A stretch of 36,226 bases of DNA from NCBI GenBank assembly GCA_012729295.1, contig JAAYDK010000040.1, positions 1-36,226 on the forward strand. Direction: 5' to 3'. This DNA is from Spirochaetales bacterium. GTDB lineage: Bacteria > Spirochaetota > Spirochaetia > Sphaerochaetales > Sphaerochaetaceae. Below are positions 21,011 to 31,496 of this stretch, one piece after another (position 1 is the stretch's first letter; every line of letters starts with the position of its first letter). The notes under the pieces are model-generated. The model was not told the origin of the DNA, ran no database searches, and saw only the letters and a list, made by a program, of their open reading frames with translations. The translations under genes and the position numbers were made by a program.

Positions 21011-22537
21011 ATGAAAAGTTCTCCAATTCTGCAGAAATACTTGAAAACGGTCGGAATCGAAACAATAGACAGCGGCATGGTAGCCTATGTTGCCGCATTG
21101 GAAGAGACCAGTCGTGTCTCTTCACTGGTTGCCGGCAGAATCGTACAAGAACTTGCCGATCAACGAAGCCATCTGAAACTGATTGCCAGCGAAAACTTCA
21201 GCAGTCTCGCATGTCAGTTGTCGATGGGTAATCTGCTGACCGACAAATATGCAGAAGGTTTTCCGTACCACAGATTTTATGCAGGATGCGACAATGTGGA
21301 TGCAATTGAAGATCATGCAGCGAAACTCGCATGCGAGCTGTTCGGAGCCGAACATGCGTATGTTCAACCGCACAGCGGTGCGGATGCGAATCTCACTGCG
21401 TATTGGGCAATCCTGAATACAAAGATACAAATGCCCACACTCGAAGAAATCGGTATTACGAATCCGAGCGAGCTGACCAGAGAACAATGGAACAAAGTTC
21501 GACAATTATGCGGAAATCAGAAATTACTCGGCCTCGACTACTATTCCGGGGGACACCTTACCCACGGGTACCGGCAGAATGTTTCAGCGCAGATGTTCGA
21601 TGCCTATACCTATACCGTTGACAAGGAAACCGGGCTTTTGGATTACGAGGTGATTGCACACATGGCCCGCGAACTCAAGCCCGCCATCTTGCTAGCCGGT
21701 TATAGCGCATACCCGAGACTGATCGATTTTGAAAAACTTGCACGGATAGCACACGAAGTCGGTGCTACGTTTATGGTCGATATGGCACATTTTGCCGGTC
21801 TGGTCGCTGGTAAAGTCATGACCGGTGCGTATGACCCCGTTGCCTGGGCCGATGTAGTAACCACCACGACACACAAGACGCTTCGCGGACCGCGCGGTGG
21901 TATGATTTTATGTAAGCAGCCCTATGCCGAAGCAGTTGATAAAGGATGTCCGCTGGTAATCGGCGGACCTCTTCCCCATATGCTTGCAGCCAAAGCTGTT
22001 GCTTTTACCGAAGCGCTGGGCGATGATTTTAAGTCCTATGCCGCATCAATCGTGAAGAACGCGCAATCATTGGCCGCACAGTGTATTCAGCAGGGAATTC
22101 CGGTTGCGACAGGCGGTACTGACAACCATCTCATGCTGCTCGATGTTAGACCTTTCGGACTTAACGGCCGGCAGGCCGAGAGTGCACTTCGCGAATGCGG
22201 AGTGACGCTGAATCGCAACGCGTTGCCGTTCGATCCGAACGGACCATGGTATACGAGCGGTCTCAGAGTCGGAACTCCCGCGGTCACAACGTTAGGGATG
22301 AAAGCAGAGCAGATGGCGGAAATCGCTTCAATCATCAAGCTCGTATTGTCGAATACCAGACCGGCAAAGATTACCAAAGGCGACAAGGCAGGGCAACTGA
22401 GCAAGGCAAAGGCCATCACCGATTCTGCTGCCGGCGAAGAGGCACGATCGAGAGTAATGAAATTACTTCACTCGTTCGTATTGTATCCTGAATTGGATTT
22501 GGATTTTCTAAAGATGCATTTTCCTTTGGCAGAGTAA
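21011..22537 (+). CDS. glyA: Serine hydroxymethyltransferase, long form
   Basis: This 508-residue PLP enzyme interconverts serine and glycine with tetrahydrofolate. Recognisable parts are LIASENFSS (58-66), NLLTDKYAEGFPYHRFYAGC, the cofactor region QPHSGADANLTAYWA (119-133), MVDMAHFAGLVAGKV (255-269), and the Schiff-base lysine Lys289 in TTTTHKTLRGPRGG. Typical bacterial enzymes have about 420 residues. The extra length lies in an insertion after residue 135 (about 137-180, LEEIGITNPSELTREQW), an N-terminal extension and a C-terminal extension of about 30. AGGAG precedes the ATG by eight bases. It heads the glycine operon and supplies or consumes the glycine handled by the cleavage system. 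Confidence 0.95.
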   Translation: MKSSPILQKYLKTVGIETIDSGMVAYVAALEETSRVSSLVAGRIVQELADQRSHLKLIASENFSSLACQLSMGNLLTDKYAEGFPYHRFYAGCDNVDAIEDHAAKLACELFGAEHAYVQPHSGADANLTAYWAILNTKIQMPTLEEIGITNPSELTREQWNKVRQLCGNQKLLGLDYYSGGHLTHGYRQNVSAQMFDAYTYTVDKETGLLDYEVIAHMARELKPAILLAGYSAYPRLIDFEKLARIAHEVGATFMVDMAHFAGLVAGKVMTGAYDPVAWADVVTTTTHKTLRGPRGGMILCKQPYAEAVDKGCPLVIGGPLPHMLAAKAVAFTEALGDDFKSYAASIVKNAQSLAAQCIQQGIPVATGGTDNHLMLLDVRPFGLNGRQAESALRECGVTLNRNALPFDPNGPWYTSGLRVGTPAVTTLGMKAEQMAEIASIIKLVLSNTRPAKITKGDKAGQLSKAKAITDSAAGEEARSRVMKLLHSFVLYPELDLDFLKMHFPLAE

Positions 22538-22575: not shown

Positions 22576-22962
22576 ATGGGAAGCATTCCAAAAGATTTGC
22601 GGTATTCGAAAGATCACGAGTGGGTTCGAGTCGTAGGCGACAGGGTAGTAGTGGGAATTACCGATTACGCTCAAGACTCGTTGGGAGAAATTGTCTATGT
22701 CGAGTTGCCCACCGTGGGAGACACATTTCAAGCTGACGAGGAAATTGCCAATGTCGAATCGGTAAAAGCAGCTTCTGCAATCTTTAATCCGGTTTCCGGA
22801 ACGGTCTCTGAAGTCAATGAAAAATTGGAAGGAGCGCCAGAACTGATCAACGAAGACTGCTACGCCAATCATCTTTATACGTTATCCGATTTCGATACAC
22901 AAGATCTGGACGGTCTGCTCGATGCCGACGGTTATGCCGAATATCTGAAAACACTCGCATAA
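22576..22962 (+). CDS. gcvH: Glycine cleavage system H protein
   Basis: This 128-residue lipoyl carrier shuttles the aminomethyl group between the P, T and L proteins. It has DLRYSKDHEWVRV near the N-terminus, VGITDYAQDSLGEIVYVELP in the centre, and the lipoylated Lys64 in ANVESVKAASAI followed by NPVSGTV. The length is normal. GAGGAG precedes the ATG by seven bases. It is 38 bases after glyA. Confidence 0.96.
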   Translation: MGSIPKDLRYSKDHEWVRVVGDRVVVGITDYAQDSLGEIVYVELPTVGDTFQADEEIANVESVKAASAIFNPVSGTVSEVNEKLEGAPELINEDCYANHLYTLSDFDTQDLDGLLDADGYAEYLKTLA

Positions 22963-23070: not shown

Positions 23071-23895
23071 ATGAAAAAACGTCTGATTATGATTCTGTTG
23101 CTGATCGGAATCATTTCATCATTATCAGCGGCGATCAAACCGTTTGTCGAAACTGAACAGGGATTGATTGCGGTTCTTTTCCATACGTATCAAAACGGCA
23201 CGAGCGGTACCGATTTTGATTTTCGATCACAAGGCGGGCAGGACGTCCTGTATCCGTTCGAACGCTATACCGTCGGTGTCGAAATAGCAGATGTGCATTG
23301 AATCTGGCTCACGTACCAGCCGCTGCGTCTGGATACGAGTGTTGCGTTTCGCGATAACGTCACTATCGGAACACAGACATTTGCTACGAATACCCCGATG
23401 AACCTCACCTATAGTTTCCCGTTCTACAGAATCAGCTATACGTACGACATATTGGCAAAATATCCGCAGGCGGTATTGGGTGTTGGCGTTGTCATGCAGA
23501 TCCGCAATGCTTCGATCGTATTCGAACAAGTAGACGGTGCAAAGCAGTACGTCTCTCAGAACGTCGGGCTTGTGCCGGCACTTGCTGTCTATGCAAGGTA
23601 TGAATTCCCGTTCGGATTGGTCTTGTCAGCAGATATTGCCGGTTCATATGCTAAATCGGCATGGTTTAACGGAGCCGGATTCGAATTTGAAGGGTCGGTC
23701 CTCGATGCCTCTCTACGCATGGGATATCTTGTCCAGAACGATTTAGAACTGTTTGGGAACCTTCGGTTTTTCGGCGGGACTGCAGAAGGGACCAGTACGG
23801 ATTCAGCTTCCACATGGACCGAACCGACCGATCGTTTTACAAAAAACAACATAGCCACGCTTGCTGTCTCGGTAGGAGTAAACAAAGCTTGGTGA
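23071..23895 (+). pseudogene. Exported beta-rich protein gene interrupted by in-frame TGA
   Basis: One frame runs from an ATG with AAGGAG (five bases upstream) to the TGA at 23893 and is broken only by a TGA at 23299-23301 (codon 77). The first 76 residues carry a signal peptide (MKKRLIMILLLIGIISSLSA). After the stop the frame stays open for almost 200 codons, with alternating polar and aromatic/hydrophobic residues (RISYTYDILAKY, PALAVYARYEFPFG, DASLRMGYLVQNDLELFGNLRFFGG) like outer-membrane barrel strands and a C-terminal strand ending AVSVGVNKAW. A TGG-to-TGA change would explain it. The gene sits between gcvH and gcvPA. Sequencing error, recent inactivation or read-through are all possible. 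The family is not recognised. Confidence 0.75.
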
Positions 23896-23981: not shown

Positions 23982-25334
23982 ATGATACCCTATCTGCCCC
24001 ATACCGAAGCCGAACGCGACCGAATGCTACAGGCAATCAAGGTCGCGTCGGTTGACGAGTTATTCGACGATATTCCGCAGGACGTTCGTGCTGATGCTGC
24101 GCTATTCGTTCAAAAAGGACTCAGCGAAGCCGAAACGCTGAGTCATGTTGTCGAGCTTGCCAAACTAAATAGAGCTTTAATTCCGTTTTTGGGAATGGGC
24201 TCGTACGATCGTATTATTCCGGCAGCTGTTGCCTCCCTTTCTTCGCTGCCGGCATTTGTCACCGCCTATACTCCGTACCAGCCTGAAATCTCGCAAGGGC
24301 TGCTACAGGCAATCTTTGAATATCAGACGATGATGTGCGAATTGACCGGCATGGACGTTTCTAACGCATCATTGTACGACGGGTGGTCGGCAGCAGCAGA
24401 AGCAGCTTCTATGATGCTTGCCTCCAAGCGTAAAAGCTCGACCGTACTGGTTTCGGATACCGTTCACCCGTTTATGATTGAGGTGTTGCAGACATGGGCG
24501 AAAGGAACCGATGTCTTGATCCGGATAATCAAGACTACCGGAGGCTCTTTTACGATTACATCGCTCGAAGGAACCCTGCAAGATTCGGTAGCAGGCCTTA
24601 TCGTTCAGAATCCGAACCGATATGGTATCGTTGAGGATTATAGCTCGCTTTCCGAACTTCTTCACCAGAACGGATGTCAATTGGCAATCAGCAGCGACCC
24701 TGTTTCGCTTGCCTTGTATAAATCGCAGGCTGAATGGGGTGCCGACATCGCATTTGGCGATACGCAGCCGTTGGGATTACCGATTTCATTTGGCGGTCCC
24801 TCCTGCGGATATCTTGCGGTTCGAAAAGAAATGATGCGCAAGATGCCCGGCCGAATTGTTGGCCAGAGTGTCGACAATCGCGGCAATCGCGCATTTGTCT
24901 TGACGCTGCAGGCACGCGAACAACATATCAAGCGTGAACGTGCGACCAGCAATATCTGCTCTAATCAAGCCCTTGCCGCGCTCACGACAACAATCCATCT
25001 TTCGTTAATCGGATGGGAAGGATTAGCTGAAGCAGCAAGACAAAGCATCGCTAAGGCAAAGTATCTGGCTGATGCGTTGACTTCTATCGGCGGTATGGAA
25101 CTTGCTTGGAAACAACCTTATTGGTGTGAATTTACCCTTCGTTTTTCCTCGAGAGAATTAATGGAACGTATGTTGGACAATCTCAAACAATCAGGAATAC
25201 TCGGAGGGGTACGTCTGGCCTGTCTTACCGGGAATCCGGATGATAACAACCTGCTGGTCGTTGCCGTTACCGAAAAACGGTCAAAGGCAGAACTTGATGC
25301 CTATATCGAGATCGCACGGAGGTCTGCATTATGA
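23982..25334 (+). CDS. gcvPA: Glycine dehydrogenase (decarboxylating) subunit 1
   Basis: This 450-residue protein is the N-terminal half of split P-protein. It starts MIPYLPHTEAERDRML, the usual opening of GcvPA, and has LIPFLGMGSYDRIIPA, YTPYQPEISQGLLQAIFEYQ, MTGMDVSNASLYDG-type residues (ELTGMDVSNASLYDGWSA) and FGGPSCGYLAV. The subunit has the PLP-enzyme fold but lacks the cofactor lysine, which is in subunit 2. AGGAGG is four bases before the ATG. It overlaps gcvPB by four bases (ATGA), ensuring equal synthesis of the two subunits. Confidence 0.95.
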   Translation: MIPYLPHTEAERDRMLQAIKVASVDELFDDIPQDVRADAALFVQKGLSEAETLSHVVELAKLNRALIPFLGMGSYDRIIPAAVASLSSLPAFVTAYTPYQPEISQGLLQAIFEYQTMMCELTGMDVSNASLYDGWSAAAEAASMMLASKRKSSTVLVSDTVHPFMIEVLQTWAKGTDVLIRIIKTTGGSFTITSLEGTLQDSVAGLIVQNPNRYGIVEDYSSLSELLHQNGCQLAISSDPVSLALYKSQAEWGADIAFGDTQPLGLPISFGGPSCGYLAVRKEMMRKMPGRIVGQSVDNRGNRAFVLTLQAREQHIKRERATSNICSNQALAALTTTIHLSLIGWEGLAEAARQSIAKAKYLADALTSIGGMELAWKQPYWCEFTLRFSSRELMERMLDNLKQSGILGGVRLACLTGNPDDNNLLVVAVTEKRSKAELDAYIEIARRSAL

Positions 25335-26788
25335 TTGAACCATTAGTTTTCGAATTATCGCGTTGTGCCAGACGCGGTTACGACTATCCCTCGTGCGACG
25401 TTCCTCAAGTTGATGTTCCTGTTGCTTTAAAGCGTATGAAGGCGGCAGCTCTGCCCGAGTTGTCCGAGCTCGACGTAGTTAGACATTTTTCCCGGCTTTC
25501 CAATAGAACCTTTGGAGTCGACTACGGAGTATATCCGCTTGGTTCGTGTACGATGAAGTACAATCCGAAGATAAACGAAAAGACTGCTTCGCTGGAAGCT
25601 TTTACCCATATTCATCCGTTACAGGATTCCGATACGGTTCAGGGCGCCTTGAAACTGATGTACCGATTGTTGGAAGCACTTTCGACTGTGACGGGAATGA
25701 GCTGGGGGTCGCTTCAGCCGTCAGCTGGAGCCCATGGTGAATATACCGGGTTGAAAATCATCAAGGCCTATCATCTGGCAAATAATCAGGGACATAGAAA
25801 CCGAGTAATCGTTCCTGTCTCGGCCCACGGAACGAATCCTGCTTCGGCTGCTCTCAACGGATTCGAAATCGTTGAAGTCGCTACCGATGAACGCGGCCTG
25901 ATCGATCTGACTTCCCTAGACGCATTACTCGACGATCGGATAGCTGCAATTATGTTGACGAATCCAAATACGCTGGGATTATTTGAGCGCGATATCGTCC
26001 TCATCGCAAATAAGGTGCATCAGGCCGGTGGATTGCTCTATTACGATGGCGCAAATCTGAATGCGATTATGGGGATGGCAAGACCGAAAGATATGGGATT
26101 TGACGTAGTCCATCTGAATCTCCATAAAACGTTCAGCACGCCTCACGGCGGCGGTGGTCCCGGTGCCGGTCCCGTACTGGTTTCAAAACCGCTTGTTCCC
26201 TACCTGCCGAAACCCGATATTGTATGTGTCGACGGCACATATCGATTCGATTGGGACAGCAGCCTTTCAATCGGCAAGGTAGCCGGATTCTGGGGGAATT
26301 TTTTAGTTTTGGTTCGAGCCTACACATATATTGTCCGCATGGGTTTACACGGATTGCGGGAAGCTTCGCGGCATGCCGTACTGAACGCAAATTACCTATT
26401 GGCAAAGCTCGAAGACCTTTTAGATCATCCGTACGGAAATTTCTGCATGCACGAATTCGTACTATCTGCTCAATCGCTGAAAGACGAAACCGGAGTTTCA
26501 GCGTTGGACATTGCCAAAGGCCTGCTTGATTGCAATTATCACCCGCCTACGATCTATTTCCCCCTCATCGTTCACGAGGCGATGATGTTCGAGCCCACAG
26601 AATCCGAATCGATGGAAAATCTCGATATACTCGCAGATACCCTAAGGATGCTTATACAGACTGCCCGCACCGATGTGGCTGTGCTTAAGAGAGCCCCCGA
26701 GCATACCGTGATAGGTAGGGTAGACGAAGTACTTGCAGCAAAATCGCCTGTATTACGCTATGTGCGTAAAGAGACAACTGAAGGTTGA
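25331..26788 (+). CDS. gcvPB: Glycine dehydrogenase (decarboxylating) subunit 2
   Basis: This 485-residue protein is the catalytic half of split P-protein and decarboxylates glycine, passing aminomethyl to lipoyl-GcvH. Visible are YGVYPLGSCTMKYNPK (66-80), SLQPSAGAHGEYTG, SAHGTNPASAA, NPNTLGLFE, YYDGANLNAIMG, and the PLP lysine Lys266 in HLNLHKTFSTPHGGGGPG. Glycine-rich phosphate-binding residues follow at once. It is coupled to gcvPA by overlap and seven bases separate its stop from the next gene. All key residues are present. Confidence 0.95.
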   Translation: MIEPLVFELSRCARRGYDYPSCDVPQVDVPVALKRMKAAALPELSELDVVRHFSRLSNRTFGVDYGVYPLGSCTMKYNPKINEKTASLEAFTHIHPLQDSDTVQGALKLMYRLLEALSTVTGMSWGSLQPSAGAHGEYTGLKIIKAYHLANNQGHRNRVIVPVSAHGTNPASAALNGFEIVEVATDERGLIDLTSLDALLDDRIAAIMLTNPNTLGLFERDIVLIANKVHQAGGLLYYDGANLNAIMGMARPKDMGFDVVHLNLHKTFSTPHGGGGPGAGPVLVSKPLVPYLPKPDIVCVDGTYRFDWDSSLSIGKVAGFWGNFLVLVRAYTYIVRMGLHGLREASRHAVLNANYLLAKLEDLLDHPYGNFCMHEFVLSAQSLKDETGVSALDIAKGLLDCNYHPPTIYFPLIVHEAMMFEPTESESMENLDILADTLRMLIQTARTDVAVLKRAPEHTVIGRVDEVLAAKSPVLRYVRKETTEG

Positions 26789-26795
26789 GGATTCT

Positions 26796-28730
26796 ATGGA
26801 AACAAAACGCGCTAATGTTGCGGTCATCGGGTCGGGTCTTGCGGCGTTAAGCGCAGCAGCATTATTGGCAAAACGAAGTCTCAAGACAATCGTAGTCGAA
26901 CAGCACTATCAACCGGGCGGCTCGTGCGGGGCTTTCAGGCGAGACGGGAGGACGATCGACCAGGGAACCAGTATGTTTTTCGGCTTTGGAGAACTCGGAT
27001 TTAATCCTCACCGTTTTTTGATGAACGAACTGGCCGAACCGATTGCCTTGATAAAGCACCGACAGCTTTATCGCCTGAATTATGCCGGCTTTCCAATTGA
27101 GTTTCATCGCGATATCGATGCTTACCTAAAAGTCTTAGGCTCATTATTTCCCGAAGATATCGACGGAATACGAGCATTTTATGAATACATCGGAGATTTG
27201 TACCACCATGTCATTGCTTCCGACCCGATTTGTGTTGCGCCTTCCGAGATTTCTCCAAAAGCCGGTGCAAAACGCTTTTTCCGGCATCCGATCCGGAATA
27301 TCAAGCTGTTAAGGCTTCTTGACACGAGTGCGGGTGAAGTCATGCGTCGTTTCGTTTCTTCTGAGCGGGTTATCGGATTTTTCAACAAGCTGACCAGCAC
27401 ATACTGCTATACGACACTGGATGAGACTCCTGCCATATTAGCCATTACGATGTTTATGGAAAACCATACCGGAGGCAGCTATTATCCTTTAGGCAGTTCG
27501 CAGCAGTTGCCAGGGAAACTGGAAAAATCGCTTGAAGCGAACGGCGGTACCATATGCTATGGATATAAGGCTGTCGGGCTGCAGTTCAAAAACGGTCAGC
27601 CTTGTGCAGTCAGATGTGAAACGCCGAACGGCGAAGTGCTCATCGAGGCCGACGACATTGTGTACGGCGGTACTTTGCAGAACATGCACAACCAATTGAT
27701 TCCAGTCGAATATCGCGATTCGAAACTTGTCGAACAGACAAACAGTCTTGCCATGACCTATCCGAGTGTCGTGCTGTATTGCATCGTTGATTCTTCGGTT
27801 TTACCTGAAGGAACGCTCCCAATCGAAATGATGGCAGACAATCCCTTAGCTTTGGACGAGAAAGAAGTCACCATGTATGCGTTTTCGCTCGCCGATCCTT
27901 CAATCTGCCATCAGAACGAGCATGTCGTGATCGCCATAGGGCCTTCATTGCAGCCGTGGCCGAATCCGAGCGATTCCGATTATCAAAGCGATTCTTACAA
28001 AGAGCGGAAGGCTCAGGAACAATCACGCCTGATTGAAGTTCTCGAATCGCACTATCCGGGATTCTCAAAGGCTGTCATTCACGCTGAGGTGGCAACGCCC
28101 TCGACGATCGAGCGTTATACCATGAAAGAGCACGGATGTGTTGCAGGACCGAAACAGATGATAGGTCAGCATCTGCTTCACCGTCAGCATGCGGCAGGAC
28201 AATGGCCTTCGCTCTATTACTGCGGAGAAGGAACCGTTATGGGAACCGGGAGCCCTGCGGTAACCATTAGCGGGATAAGCGCAGCAAATATGGTACTTCG
28301 CCGGCATCATATGCAGGAATACGAATTCAATCCGAAAACTCCGAATGTCGTACAGATTATTGACGAACACGCTTTGCCGGTTCGGATGCGGGACAAGAGA
28401 GTTCTTCCGTCGCTCAATATGATAGAAGATCCTCGGGCAATCGAATTACACGATGCCGCCAGTGCCTGCCAATGGTGCGAGAAAGCAACTTGTTTTGAAA
28501 TATGTCCTTCAAAGATCGATATCAGGGGAATCATGCGAAGATTGGAGTGCGGTAATGTAAACGGGGCGAAACGATTGCTGGCTCAGCATGTAGATGCTGC
28601 AACCGGCCGCCTCGTATGCGAAACCTGCAGCGCACCGTGCCAAGGTGCCTGCCTGCGCAAGATATTTGACCATCAATCCGTCGAGATCCGATCGACTCTG
28701 ATTGCTCTTCAATCTACGGTATTCGCTTAA
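26796..28730 (+). CDS. CrtI-like FAD oxidoreductase fused to a C-terminal Fe-S domain
   Basis: This 644-residue protein has two parts. Residues 1 to about 530 are a flavin amine-oxidase/phytoene-desaturase-like domain: dinucleotide fold VAVIGSGLAALSAAALLAKR (8-27), then VVEQHYQPGGSCGAF, and a closing YYCGEGTVMGTGSPAVTISG flavin-binding segment. Residues 555-640 hold eight cysteines in two groups, CxxCx4Cx3CP (558, 561, 566, 570) and CxxCx3Cx3C (608, 611, 615, 619), like the two [4Fe-4S] site domain at the N-terminus of GltD and dihydropyrimidine dehydrogenase, but here at the C-terminus. The ATG at 26796 has GAGG close before it and follows gcvPB by seven bases. The reaction is unknown; electron transfer linked to glycine metabolism is a guess. 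Confidence 0.82.
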   Translation: METKRANVAVIGSGLAALSAAALLAKRSLKTIVVEQHYQPGGSCGAFRRDGRTIDQGTSMFFGFGELGFNPHRFLMNELAEPIALIKHRQLYRLNYAGFPIEFHRDIDAYLKVLGSLFPEDIDGIRAFYEYIGDLYHHVIASDPICVAPSEISPKAGAKRFFRHPIRNIKLLRLLDTSAGEVMRRFVSSERVIGFFNKLTSTYCYTTLDETPAILAITMFMENHTGGSYYPLGSSQQLPGKLEKSLEANGGTICYGYKAVGLQFKNGQPCAVRCETPNGEVLIEADDIVYGGTLQNMHNQLIPVEYRDSKLVEQTNSLAMTYPSVVLYCIVDSSVLPEGTLPIEMMADNPLALDEKEVTMYAFSLADPSICHQNEHVVIAIGPSLQPWPNPSDSDYQSDSYKERKAQEQSRLIEVLESHYPGFSKAVIHAEVATPSTIERYTMKEHGCVAGPKQMIGQHLLHRQHAAGQWPSLYYCGEGTVMGTGSPAVTISGISAANMVLRRHHMQEYEFNPKTPNVVQIIDEHALPVRMRDKRVLPSLNMIEDPRAIELHDAASACQWCEKATCFEICPSKIDIRGIMRRLECGNVNGAKRLLAQHVDAATGRLVCETCSAPCQGACLRKIFDHQSVEIRSTLIALQSTVFA

Positions 28731-29995
28731 GGTGCCTTCGGTGTATCGAGGATTCCGATAAACAGCGGCAGTTGGGTTTCCTGATCCAGGATTCCATAGA
28801 AAAATGGACGGTCGAATACGATTTTCCGAATTTGTTGTGGAGCCATTGCGGTGGCCTTCATCACCACAGAAGTGACGGCCGCTGCTTCTGTTCCCTCTTC
28901 GTCAACCTGGATGAAGGTTTTATGTTTCACGTCGCTGATGAACAAGTCTTTTGTTCCGGCAGCACTCATCAACGAGAAATCGGCCTTATCGGCTTTGAAC
29001 GCTATATCCATACCCATTGCTGCTAAATCGGCTAACAGACTGTCTTCGTACAAAGCTTTAAACTTCGGTAGAGCAAGCTCGACTTCGCTCGCTCTGCGTT
29101 CGACCGATTGCACAAGTAACGAGAACAGTATTTGTGGTTGCTGTCGATTCAGCCATGATCGCACATCGGTGTTTTTATCGGGCATTATGGCGAAGAACCA
29201 AAATCTGCGGCCGTTATAGGGGAGCATGATACCCTGAGCCCCGTCGTGTTCGAGCCATTGCATGTTGCGAGTCGAGTTAAGAAATGCAGTCGTCCGATCA
29301 CCTGAAGGCGTGTGGAATATTCGGTCGCTGGTTCTCTTTGTCTCGAACGGATCTTCCCACAAAGATTTGAAATAACTGGCATTTATCAGAATCATCAGCA
29401 TATCTGCCGATGTCTGATCGATAATGGAATCTATTTTTCCTTTCGTGGCATCGGAAACCCAATCGTTTATGCTTTTCGCAGCGGCAAGACCGGCGAAATT
29501 CAAAGCTTTCGCGGCAGCTTTGTAAAAGTCGGCATTCGATTGTAAAAATCCCTGGGCTACCTGATAATCCTGCTGAATCCAGATTGAATTGGCTATTTCC
29601 AAAACAGTGTTCTTCTCTTTAGTCTCCAGAGTGTTGAGCCATATTGCCGCCGTACGGTTGATTTCATCCATCGAGTTTCCATCAGAAAGGGTCGATAGCA
29701 TTGCCGATTTCGTTTCGTGTTGCGCACCGTTGGCGGTCATGGCAAGAGCAAGATACACCGATAAGGGAGAAACCATAATATTTTCCGGCTGGCGGGCACT
29801 TGTCGATTGCAGCAGCTTGAGCGAGAAACGATAATAACCTTCCAGTACGGGCGTATCGGGCTTGCCGATGTCGACAGTTTTTGAAGCTTTGACTGAACGC
29901 ATGAGATCCTCCGATTGCTGCTCGCTTAGTGCGGCACTAAAGCAGAAGGAACCGACTAATAGTACGACTACGGTCAGTAGCAGGTTTTTATTCAT
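28727..29995 (-). CDS. Exported serpin (serine protease inhibitor)
   Basis: This 422-residue protein has a signal peptide (MNKNLLLTVVVLLVGSFCFSA) and a complete serpin fold: NIMVSPLSVYLALAMTANGA (72-91), LEIANSIWIQ, INDWVSDATKGKI, LILINASYFKSLWEDPF-like strand, and the end FDRPFFYGI then PLFIGIL. The reactive-loop hinge EEGTEAAAVTS (366-376) has the small residues needed for loop insertion, so an inhibitory serpin is predicted. Counting from the hinge puts P1 near Thr380, but the loop is about four residues longer than in alpha-1-antitrypsin, so P1 is uncertain. GGAGG is nine bases before the ATG. Its stop overlaps that of the convergent flavoprotein gene. It probably protects the cell envelope from proteases. 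Confidence 0.92.
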   Translation of the reverse strand: MNKNLLLTVVVLLVGSFCFSAALSEQQSEDLMRSVKASKTVDIGKPDTPVLEGYYRFSLKLLQSTSARQPENIMVSPLSVYLALAMTANGAQHETKSAMLSTLSDGNSMDEINRTAAIWLNTLETKEKNTVLEIANSIWIQQDYQVAQGFLQSNADFYKAAAKALNFAGLAAAKSINDWVSDATKGKIDSIIDQTSADMLMILINASYFKSLWEDPFETKRTSDRIFHTPSGDRTTAFLNSTRNMQWLEHDGAQGIMLPYNGRRFWFFAIMPDKNTDVRSWLNRQQPQILFSLLVQSVERRASEVELALPKFKALYEDSLLADLAAMGMDIAFKADKADFSLMSAAGTKDLFISDVKHKTFIQVDEEGTEAAAVTSVVMKATAMAPQQIRKIVFDRPFFYGILDQETQLPLFIGILDTPKAP

Positions 29996-30071: not shown

Positions 30072-30100
30072 TTGTCAACGCTCTGCTTCGATAGTATCCT
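30072..30100 (+). promoter_or_regulatory. Promoter giving a leaderless hydantoinase mRNA
   Basis: TTGTCA (30072-30077) and TATCCT (30095-30100) with a 17-base spacer. The -10 box ends seven bases before the ATG at 30108, so transcription should begin at or next to the start codon. Confidence 0.6.
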
Positions 30101-30107
30101 GTCACAC

Positions 30108-31496
30108 ATGAGCAATATATTGATCAAAGACGGACTACTAGTCGAATCTTCTCGTTCGTGGCACGCAGATTTGTTGATTGAAGGTGAATCGATCAGCCGA
30201 ATCGATTCGATAATTCCGGATTCCGAGCTTCCTGCCGATACGGAGGTAATCAACGCAGAACATCTCTGTGTCCTGCCCGGTCTCATCGATGCCCATACCC
30301 ATTACCATTTAGTATCGCGGGGGACTGTAACCGCCGATAGTTTTGTGCAGGGCAGCAAAGCTGCGGCGTTTGGTGGAGTAACGACAGTCATAGACTTCGC
30401 CGACCACGACAAAAACCGTCCGTTGGCAGAATCGGCCAGAGAGCGTATCGGTGCCATGCAAAACCAGATGGCCATCGATTTTTCCCTGCATCAAGGAGTA
30501 TACGGCGTTCCCGCAACTTTAGAAAAAGAACTTGCAAGCGTAAAAGCGTTGGGCATTAGTGCAATCAAGATTTTTACTACGTATAAGAATGTCGGATATC
30601 TGATCGAGTCTGAAAAGCTCGAGCGTCTGTTTAAAGCATGTAAAGCGCTCAATCTGCTGGTAACGGCACATTGTGAAGACGATGAGTATCTTGAATCGGT
30701 TGCACATAGTCGCTCTTGGACATATTCTGCAGTCGATCATGCAGACTTACGGCCTGCCGAAGCCGAATACCGCGCGATACGCAAGCTCGGTTCTCTTGCC
30801 TTAAAAGTCGGTATCCCCCTCTATATCGTACATATTTCCTCGGCGCTCGGTATGCAAGCAGTCCGCCAGTTGCGAGCCGAAGGCGCAACCATCATTGCTG
30901 AAACAACTCCTCATTATCTATTGCTCGACAGAAGGCGTTTGGAAGGGGACAGCGGAGCGCTGTATGTCATGACTCCGCCGTTACGAACACGCAAAGATAG
31001 TATCGCGCTGCAGGATGCATTAGTCGCACGCGAGATACAAGTCGTAGCTACAGACCACTGCTCCTTTACCGCCGAACAGAAGTTGTCTTCGCAAGACTGC
31101 CGCACCATCTATCCGGGTATCCCAGGAACCGAAGAGATGCTTCCTTTGATTTTTACCTTTGCGGTAGCTTCGGGAAGAATGTCGCTTTCTCAAATGGTAC
31201 GGCTGCTTTCAACCGGCCCGGCCCGTGCGTTCGGTTTGTATCCTCGTAAAGGATCGCTGCAAGTCGGTACCGATGCCGATATCGTGCTGTTCGATCCTGA
31301 AGTCGTTTGGACCATAGACAGTCATACCATACATAGCGCATCGGGATATTCGCCCTATGAAGGGTCCAGAGTTATGGGAAAGGCAGAAATGACTTTCTTA
31401 CGCGGTCGGTTAGTCATGGGCGACGGAGTCTATCTGGGAAGGCCCGGAGACGGTCGCTTTGTAACAATGAATTCGTCGAATGCGTATGGAGTTTGA
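30108..31496 (+). CDS. Hydantoinase/dihydropyrimidinase-type amidohydrolase
   Basis: This 462-residue metal-dependent cyclic amidase has the full dinuclear site: His63 and His65 in DAHTHYH, the lysine to be carboxylated Lys154 in AIKIFTTYK, His188 in TAHCEDD, His242 in IVHISS and Asp316 in VATDHCSF. Tyr159 is the usual substrate-binding tyrosine of D-hydantoinases, and the C-terminal beta-domain begins near GTDADIVLFDPE. It hydrolyses dihydropyrimidines, hydantoins or related ring amides; dihydroorotase is less likely given the KIFTTYK context. The ATG at 30108 is chosen because upstream codons overlap the promoter. There is no Shine-Dalgarno. It overlaps the next gene. Confidence 0.88.
   Translation: MSNILIKDGLLVESSRSWHADLLIEGESISRIDSIIPDSELPADTEVINAEHLCVLPGLIDAHTHYHLVSRGTVTADSFVQGSKAAAFGGVTTVIDFADHDKNRPLAESARERIGAMQNQMAIDFSLHQGVYGVPATLEKELASVKALGISAIKIFTTYKNVGYLIESEKLERLFKACKALNLLVTAHCEDDEYLESVAHSRSWTYSAVDHADLRPAEAEYRAIRKLGSLALKVGIPLYIVHISSALGMQAVRQLRAEGATIIAETTPHYLLLDRRRLEGDSGALYVMTPPLRTRKDSIALQDALVAREIQVVATDHCSFTAEQKLSSQDCRTIYPGIPGTEEMLPLIFTFAVASGRMSLSQMVRLLSTGPARAFGLYPRKGSLQVGTDADIVLFDPEVVWTIDSHTIHSASGYSPYEGSRVMGKAEMTFLRGRLVMGDGVYLGRPGDGRFVTMNSSNAYGV

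What the first reader, a model, noticed from the sequence alone, without database searches (positions are those of the whole stretch)
26796..28730. CrtI-like flavoprotein with a two-cluster Fe-S domain at the wrong end, inside a glycine cleavage operon
In GltD and related enzymes the two-[4Fe-4S] cysteine domain precedes the FAD domain. Here a very similar eight-cysteine pattern (558-570 and 608-619) follows a phytoene-desaturase-like FAD domain, and the gene is seven bases behind gcvPB. A redox protein with this order and context could pass electrons between a flavin substrate site and ferredoxin, or couple to glycine-derived reducing power. The gene could replace or assist the missing lipoamide dehydrogenase step, which is speculation.
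Basis: partly seen in the sequence, partly recalled or inferred. Interest (0 to 1): 0.62.

Follow-up and report, generated by a model that had tools for sequence, protein, structure and literature searches.

The report
Flavin enzyme with built-in electron wire
This gene from a relative of the bacterium Sphaerochaeta encodes a flavin enzyme of the carotenoid-desaturase type with an iron-sulfur electron wire fused to its tail, an unusual domain order that is conserved in relatives, but its place behind the glycine-breakdown genes looks like a local accident rather than its job.

Summary
All eight cysteines (558, 561, 566, 570, 608, 611, 615, 619) are kept in every full-length close relative examined, down to about 50% identity and in deeper branches. 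A sister clade kept only four cysteines, the set expected for one of the two clusters. The gene starts 7 nt behind gcvPB and is probably co-transcribed. Two congeners have the same block without the gene, and relatives outside the family are not gcv-linked where their flanks could be read. Every genome tested has a lipoamide dehydrogenase and gcvT elsewhere, and the Lpd disulfide motif is absent. In six Sphaerochaeta-type genomes a flavodoxin-like gene directly precedes the four-cysteine paralogue. Best reading: an O2-independent CrtI-family oxidoreductase or isomerase whose flavin is wired to ferredoxin or flavodoxin. Substrate and electron direction are unknown. New variant of a known kind, moderate interest.

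The parts
26796..28730 (+). 644-aa flavoprotein gene (called crtFeS here): CrtI/CrtISO-type FAD domain plus C-terminal two-cluster Fe-S domain
   Evidence: ORF; Pfam; NCBIfam; orthologues
26796..28298 (+). CrtI/CrtISO-type FAD domain, residues 1-501 (GSGLAAL dinucleotide motif, E35, invariant PGGSCG with C44)
   Evidence: Pfam PF13450/PF01593; TIGR02730; top Foldseek hits gamma-carotene desaturase 4rep and CRTI 4dgk; invariant columns
28428..28703 (+). C-terminal Fer4_20 (DPD domain II/GltD-type) two-[4Fe-4S] domain, about residues 545-636
   Evidence: Pfam PF14691; PDB profile search; predicted fold and Foldseek
28467..28505 (+). first cysteine motif CQWC-x4-C-x3-CP (C558, C561, C566, C570)
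   Evidence: sequence; invariant in A1/A3
28617..28652 (+). second cysteine motif C-x2-C-x3-C-x3-C (C608, C611, C615, C619)
   Evidence: sequence; invariant in A1/A3
26787..26790 (+). GAGG Shine-Dalgarno-like motif overlapping the gcvPB stop codon, 5 nt before the ATG (translational coupling likely)
   Evidence: sequence
25331..26788 (+). gcvPB, glycine dehydrogenase subunit 2
   Evidence: NF003346 704 bits over cut-off 441
23982..25334 (+). gcvPA, glycine dehydrogenase subunit 1
   Evidence: NF001696 540.7 bits over cut-off 364
22576..22962 (+). gcvH
   Evidence: NF002270 and TIGR00527 over cut-off
21011..22537 (+). glyA, serine hydroxymethyltransferase
   Evidence: NF010094 over cut-off
30072..31496 (+). 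hydantoinase/dihydropyrimidinase-like amidohydrolase: the usual neighbour behind gcvPB in the family, with or without crtFeS
   Evidence: TIGR02033 381.6 bits (cut-off 393); synteny

Best explanation
crtFeS is an oxygen-independent flavoenzyme of the CrtI/CrtISO superfamily with its electron wire built in. The N-terminal domain binds FAD non-covalently (inferred from the family) and acts on an unsaturated, probably isoprenoid, substrate. The C-terminal GltD/DPD-type domain holds two [4Fe-4S] clusters, proposed as cluster I = C558, C561, C566, C619 and cluster II = C570, C608, C611, C615. They pass single electrons between the flavin and a soluble carrier, ferredoxin or flavodoxin. I favour the carrier reducing the flavin, so that the enzyme works as a reductase or as a reduced-FAD-dependent isomerase or hydratase; the reverse direction is the main rival. 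The place behind gcvPB gives co-expression in one lineage but not a role in glycine cleavage. Shown: both domains, their order, cysteine conservation, the conserved one-cluster sister clade, and the pattern of linkage. Inferred: cofactor occupancy, cluster ligand assignment, carrier, direction and substrate class.
For: FAD domain CrtI/CrtISO-type by sequence and fold. Fer4_20 by Pfam, PDB profile search and predicted fold. All eight cysteines invariant in 13 aligned sequences and present by inspection in five more, including deep branches L053-L056. The sister clade (97/100 support) lost exactly four and keeps C-x2-C-x4-C...C, the set expected for one whole cluster by analogy with DPD. DPD/GltS use a Gln/Glu fourth ligand for one of the two clusters (PMC8097209); the aligned position here (635) is hydrophobic and the extra C608 is invariant, as expected if C608 replaces it. 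A flavodoxin-like gene abuts the gene upstream on the same strand in six genomes (Flavodoxin_4 above cut-off in L129; PRK07116 below cut-off for L022), and a Flavodoxin_5 gene lies about 1 kb away in L031/L033. CRTI needs O2 or quinones, and CrtISO needs reduced FAD (PMC3382138); fermentative spirochaetes can lack quinones and cytochromes (PMC4511686), so an Fe-S wire fits. Related uses of ferredoxin: M. acetivorans geranylgeranyl reductase (PMC10821996) and CtmAB with ferredoxin CtmE (PMC4109377).
Against: No substrate, activity, FAD or cluster content has been measured. Confidence near the flavin is low in the model (residues 41-44, 63-66, 450-463, 479-485), and the flavin-to-cluster distance could not be read. 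Flavodoxin is a neighbour of the paralogue clade and of two Marinimicrobia copies, not of the window gene. The gene neighbourhood does not point to one pathway. The Foldseek E-values for the short tail domain are weak (0.009-0.1), although the top hits are consistent.
Confidence: 0.55

Rival explanations
1. Electron outlet: an anaerobic dehydrogenase, desaturase or hydroxylase of the limonene-dehydrogenase (CtmAB) type, in which substrate oxidation reduces FAD and the Fe-S domain passes electrons out to ferredoxin or flavodoxin. It may act as a heterodimer with a second CrtI-like protein.
For: CtmA/CtmB are paired COG1233 flavoproteins that work with a ferredoxin (PMC4109377). A second CrtI-like gene (fad2) lies directly downstream of this family in G000 (L002), G015 and G420, and starts behind the gcv-linked copy in G434.
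Against: The window gene itself has no fad2 next to it. The nearest equivalog model is the isomerase, a FADred enzyme.
Confidence: 0.25
2. Carotenoid-pathway enzyme of Sphaerochaetaceae: isomerase, saturase or extra desaturase acting on the product of the separate crtI-crtB operon.
For: A crtI-crtB operon is present in this genome (L119). Within the family, 10 of 14 crtFeS genomes also have SQS_PSY against 3 of 67 without (Fisher p = 1.3e-7, naive).
Against: Phylogeny and genome size confound the association: among genomes of 2.6 Mb or more it is 10/3/3/7, p = 0.04. Four family genomes and all ten crtFeS genomes tested outside the family have no SQS_PSY. It is not in the crt operon.
Confidence: 0.12
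3. One reading: the protein works with glycine cleavage, replacing or assisting lipoamide dehydrogenase.
For: Seven-base spacing with a coupled ribosome-binding site. Linkage in six family genomes at the identical site. All 14 crtFeS genomes of the family have gcvPB.
Against: Lpd over its curated cut-off in all 12 genomes tested, including this one. No CxxxxC disulfide: only C44 in GGSCGAFRRDG. 31 of 37 gcvPB genomes lack the gene at gcv, and 23 lack the family altogether. Clean absence in congeners G032 and G431. No linkage outside the family where flanks could be read.
Confidence: 0.04
4. The Fe-S domain is structural or an assembly surface that holds a partner protein, as cluster loss abolishes alpha-beta association in glutamate synthase, and does not carry electrons.
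For: Cluster-ligand mutants of GltS lose subunit association (PMC8097209). The sister clade lost one cluster's ligands but kept the protein.
Against: Strict conservation of all eight cysteines in the main clade, and flavodoxin-like neighbours of the clade that lost one cluster's ligands.
Confidence: 0.08

Closest known systems
CrtISO / CRTI carotenoid isomerase and desaturase superfamily (TIGR02730, TIGR02734, COG1233)
   Same: Whole-length match of residues 8-499 to TIGR02730; best structural matches 4rep and 4dgk.
   Different: Scores far below the equivalog cut-offs; CRTI uses FAD as its sole redox cofactor with O2 or quinones; this protein adds a two-cluster Fe-S domain.
Fer4_20 domain of GltD, DPD, NfnL and related proteins (PF14691)
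   Same: Same domain by sequence, PDB profile search and predicted fold, same CxxCx4Cx3CP motif.
   Different: Lies C-terminal to the flavin domain instead of N-terminal; its flavin domain is not of the Pyr_redox_2/NAD(P)H type; C608 appears while the Gln/Glu ligand position is hydrophobic.
Limonene dehydrogenase CtmAB with ferredoxin CtmE (Castellaniella defragrans)
   Same: COG1233-type flavoprotein that operates without O2 with a ferredoxin (PMC4109377); pairing of two CrtI-like genes is seen in some relatives here.
   Different: CtmE is a separate 2Fe-2S ferredoxin and the flavins are reported as covalent (PMC11061730); here the carrier domain is fused and of the 2x[4Fe-4S] type.
Ferredoxin-dependent archaeal geranylgeranyl reductase
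   Same: Works like it: a flavoprotein reduced by ferredoxin encoded in the same locus (PMC10821996).
   Different: Different flavoprotein subfamily; carrier not fused.
NF045663 pyridine nucleotide-disulfide oxidoreductase/dicluster-binding protein
   Same: Best NCBIfam hit of the tail (38.7 bits).
   Different: Dicluster domain at its N-terminus (profile positions 4-83 of 759) and far below its cut-off of 530.

Membership tests
CrtISO carotenoid isomerase (TIGR02730 equivalog) | score at or above curated cut-off 586.9 | tested here: not met
   204.9 bits
CrtI/COG1233 flavoprotein superfamily | N-terminal FAD dinucleotide fold plus CrtI-type substrate domain over the whole length | tested here: met
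   Pfam PF13450/PF01593 over cut-off; Foldseek 4rep E 7e-23, TMt 0.73
CrtI phytoene desaturase | phytoene or other carotene as substrate | not testable with these tools
   needs an assay; crtB absent from many genomes that carry the gene
Fer4_20 (DPD domain II) domain | score above Pfam gathering threshold and eight-cysteine pattern | tested here: met
   30.5/35.0 bits against 25.8; all eight Cys invariant
GltD/DPD/NfnL-type enzymes | Fer4_20 domain N-terminal to a Pyr_redox_2 FAD/NAD(P)H domain | tested here: not met
   Fer4_20 at residues 552-632, after the FAD domain; Pyr_redox_2 16.2 bits, below 26.1
Dihydrolipoamide dehydrogenase | CxxxxC redox disulfide near the FAD and score above TIGR01350 cut-off | tested here: not met
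   only C44, no second Cys; TIGR01350 not among the 25 best NCBIfam hits shown; genuine Lpd elsewhere in the genome
Limonene dehydrogenase CtmAB | two paired COG1233 subunits, each with a His-linked flavin | not tested
   no CtmAB sequence in hand; the window gene has no paired gene, some relatives do
Glycine cleavage system component | phylogenetically broad linkage or co-occurrence with gcv genes | tested here: not met
   linked in 6 of 37 gcvPB genomes of one family, unlinked in relatives outside it where flanks could be read

The most novel reading that the evidence does not exclude
A self-wired class of CrtI-family enzymes: the O2 or quinone dependence of desaturases and isomerases is replaced by a fused two-[4Fe-4S] domain that docks ferredoxin or flavodoxin, giving anaerobes a low-potential route to reduce, isomerise, hydrate or hydroxylate isoprenoid or other hydrocarbon-like substrates.
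Probability: 0.4. Interest if true: 0.62.

Novelty: new variant of a known kind. Interest (0 to 1): 0.45.

Why it matters
Flavoenzymes of the CrtI superfamily carry out difficult chemistry on lipids and terpenes, but well-known members depend on oxygen, quinones or artificial reductants. A member with its own conserved iron-sulfur wire, and a sister clade that apparently shed one cluster while pairing with a flavodoxin-like protein, shows how anaerobes could drive this chemistry and gives a directly testable system for electron entry into CrtISO-like flavins. It also suggests that the GltD-type Fe-S domain is a portable module that can be placed at either end of a flavoprotein.

Tried and rejected
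Lpd substitute: rejected (Lpd present, disulfide missing). Zinc domain: rejected, since Fer4_20 is the only tail family above threshold and the significant PDB matches are Fe-S proteins. Role in pyrimidine or hydantoin catabolism, suggested by the adjacent hydantoinase-like gene and the DPD-type domain: the hydantoinase stays behind gcvPB in genomes without crtFeS, so it tracks gcv and not crtFeS. Nucleoside salvage, suggested by BMP/nucleoside ABC and phosphorylase genes beside L027/L028: not seen in other loci. Carotenoid pathway: association confounded. Three early calls failed on wrong frames; two alignments likewise. The DPD structure paper is not held, so the DPD residue numbers of the cluster ligands rest on memory; only the unusual Gln/Glu ligand is sourced. 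Three paper searches found no mention of this domain combination. Plasmid records hold only distant CrtI-like proteins whose matches end before the Fe-S domain.

Full report
What is there. The gene runs from ATG 26796 to TAA 28728-28730 on the + strand and encodes 644 residues. gcvPB stops at 26788; a GAGG motif at 26787-26790 overlaps that stop and lies 5 nt before the ATG, so co-transcription and translational coupling are likely (inference). The set in front is glyA (21011), gcvH (22576), an outer-membrane-like ORF with an in-frame stop (23071-23895), gcvPA (23982) and gcvPB (25331), all but the ORF above NCBIfam cut-offs. gcvT is on another contig. Behind the gene come a serpin on the opposite strand, a hydantoinase-like gene, an ICMT-like gene, an SDR, an MscL-like gene and a PutP-like symporter (SDR and MscL named by reading the translations).

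Domains. Residues 1-501 are a CrtI-type FAD domain: Pfam NAD_binding_8 and Amino_oxidase above cut-off, TIGR02730 carotenoid isomerase over residues 8-499 at 204.9 bits, below the equivalog cut-off of 586.9. The AlphaFold model (mean pLDDT 82.6, pTM 0.88) has gamma-carotene desaturase 4rep and CRTI 4dgk as best PDB matches. Residues 552-632 are Fer4_20 (30.5 bits, cut-off 25.8; 35 bits alone). A profile of 13 tails finds NfnL (4ylf, 6e-10), DPD (3.8e-6), GltD-type and formate-dehydrogenase-linked proteins in the PDB. The tail alone folds with pLDDT 88, and the best Foldseek hits are NfnL, DPD and GltD with TM 0.6-0.7, though with weak E-values for so short a domain.

Cysteines. C558, C561, C566, C570, C608, C611, C615 and C619 are invariant in seven orthologues of 54-68% identity and in 13 sequences down to 51%. 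The four deepest relatives (L053-L056) and L008 also carry eight by inspection. A separate clade (support 97/100), which includes a second copy in this genome (L002, 43% identity) and the Sphaerochaeta-type copies, has only C-x2-C-x4-C and one late cysteine. In the alignment the first four cysteines fall on DPD C79, C82, C87 and C91, and C611, C615, C619 on C130, C136, C140. From memory, DPD cluster nFeS1 is held by the first three cysteines of motif 1 and the last of motif 2; the four-cysteine clade keeps exactly that set and has lost the other. One DPD/GltS cluster has a Gln or Glu ligand (PMC8097209). By counting on from the alignment, that position is residue 635 here, a mostly hydrophobic position in the family, while C608 is a new invariant cysteine. 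I infer two all-cysteine clusters in the main clade and one in the sister clade.

Distribution and linkage. Family-wide tests used 81 genomes of the window's family. The gcv-linked copies (G000, G001, G006, G017, G021, G434) sit directly behind gcvPB, with the hydantoinase-like gene next where the contig goes on, and group together in the tree (support 88/100 against the other groups; the ungrouped rows L025 and L036 lie inside). Congeners G032 and G431 have the same block glyA-gcvH-OMP-gcvPA-gcvPB-serpin-hydantoinase-SDR-MscL with no room for the gene between gcvPB and the serpin. Relatives in other spirochaete families and in Marinimicrobia (L016/L028, L017/L032, L027, L031, L033) are not beside gcv; for several further loci the contig ends too soon to tell. 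In 393 genomes of the phylum only 10 matched at E 1e-100, and 4 of 245 in the Marinimicrobia phylum at E 1e-60. So the gcv position is real, stable at one site, optional, and confined to one family in this sample.

Function. Lpd above its curated cut-off and gcvT are present in all 12 genomes tested. The protein has no second cysteine after C44 in GGSCGAFRRDG, so it cannot use the Lpd disulfide mechanism. The more telling neighbours belong to relatives: a flavodoxin-like gene directly upstream and on the same strand in six genomes (G003, G023, G438, G440, G442, G448), Flavodoxin_4 above cut-off in one and no Pfam hit in another; a Flavodoxin_5 gene about 1 kb away in L031/L033; a Rieske oxygenase directly upstream in L002 and L036; and a second CrtI-like gene directly downstream in G000, G015 and G420 and starting behind the gcv-linked copy of G434. 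CRTI uses FAD as sole cofactor with O2 or quinones, and CrtISO needs reduced FAD (PMC3382138). A fermentative spirochaete has been described without cytochromes or quinones (PMC4511686). Ferredoxin partners are reported for archaeal geranylgeranyl reductase (PMC10821996) and for limonene dehydrogenase CtmAB (PMC4109377). Together these support a flavin wired to a one-electron carrier. Reduction of the flavin by the carrier is favoured by the CrtISO similarity and the flavodoxin-like neighbours; the opposite direction, as in CtmAB, is not excluded.

Carotenoid test. A crtI-crtB operon exists in this genome (L119), and SQS_PSY occurs in 13 of 81 family genomes. Ten of 14 crtFeS genomes have it against 3 of 67 without (p = 1.3e-7, naive), but among genomes of at least 2.6 Mb the table is 10/3/3/7 (p = 0.04), and ten crtFeS genomes outside the family have none. 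A carotenoid substrate is possible in this family but cannot be general.

Verdict. It is a new variant of a known kind; three paper searches found no description of this domain order, which is weak evidence of novelty. No biochemical claim here has been tested.

Noticed in passing
window 30072-31496: A hydantoinase/dihydropyrimidinase-like gene lies behind gcvPB (or behind crtFeS or the serpin) across most Sphaerochaetaceae gcv loci examined, suggesting a hydantoin or N-carbamoylglycine to glycine route feeding glycine cleavage.
   Followed up: partly
window 23071-23895: Outer-membrane-like ORF inside the gcv set is interrupted by an in-frame TGA at 23299-23301; homologues occur at the same place in relatives, with an uninterrupted frame in L015.
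   Followed up: partly
window 28727-29995 (-): Bacterial serpin gene (Pfam Serpin 306.9 bits), convergent with crtFeS and overlapping its end by 4 nt; kept at the same site in several relatives with and without crtFeS.
   Followed up: partly
L022 8527-10900, L023 7832-10227, L126, L127, L128, L129: Conserved two-gene operon, flavodoxin-like gene plus the four-cysteine paralogue, in six Sphaerochaeta-type genomes.
   Followed up: yes
L111 297-3773; L130 7533-9942: Rieske oxygenase gene (Rieske plus VanA_C domains) directly upstream of the CrtI-FeS gene in presumed anaerobes, with a TetR-like regulator in L111.
   Followed up: partly
L117, L118, L119, L120: Putative carotenoid operon crtI, crtB (SQS_PSY) and a small membrane protein, with an Mn-type pyrophosphatase-like gene next in L119 and L120, in Sphaerochaetaceae including the window's own genome.
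   Followed up: partly
L025: A contig labelled Thermotogales MAG carries a 62%-identical copy nested among the Sphaerochaetaceae gcv-linked copies; possibly mis-binned or a recent transfer.
   Followed up: no
L008 1024-3093: The G006 orthologue has an extra stretch of about 53 residues in the linker between the FAD and Fe-S domains.
   Followed up: no
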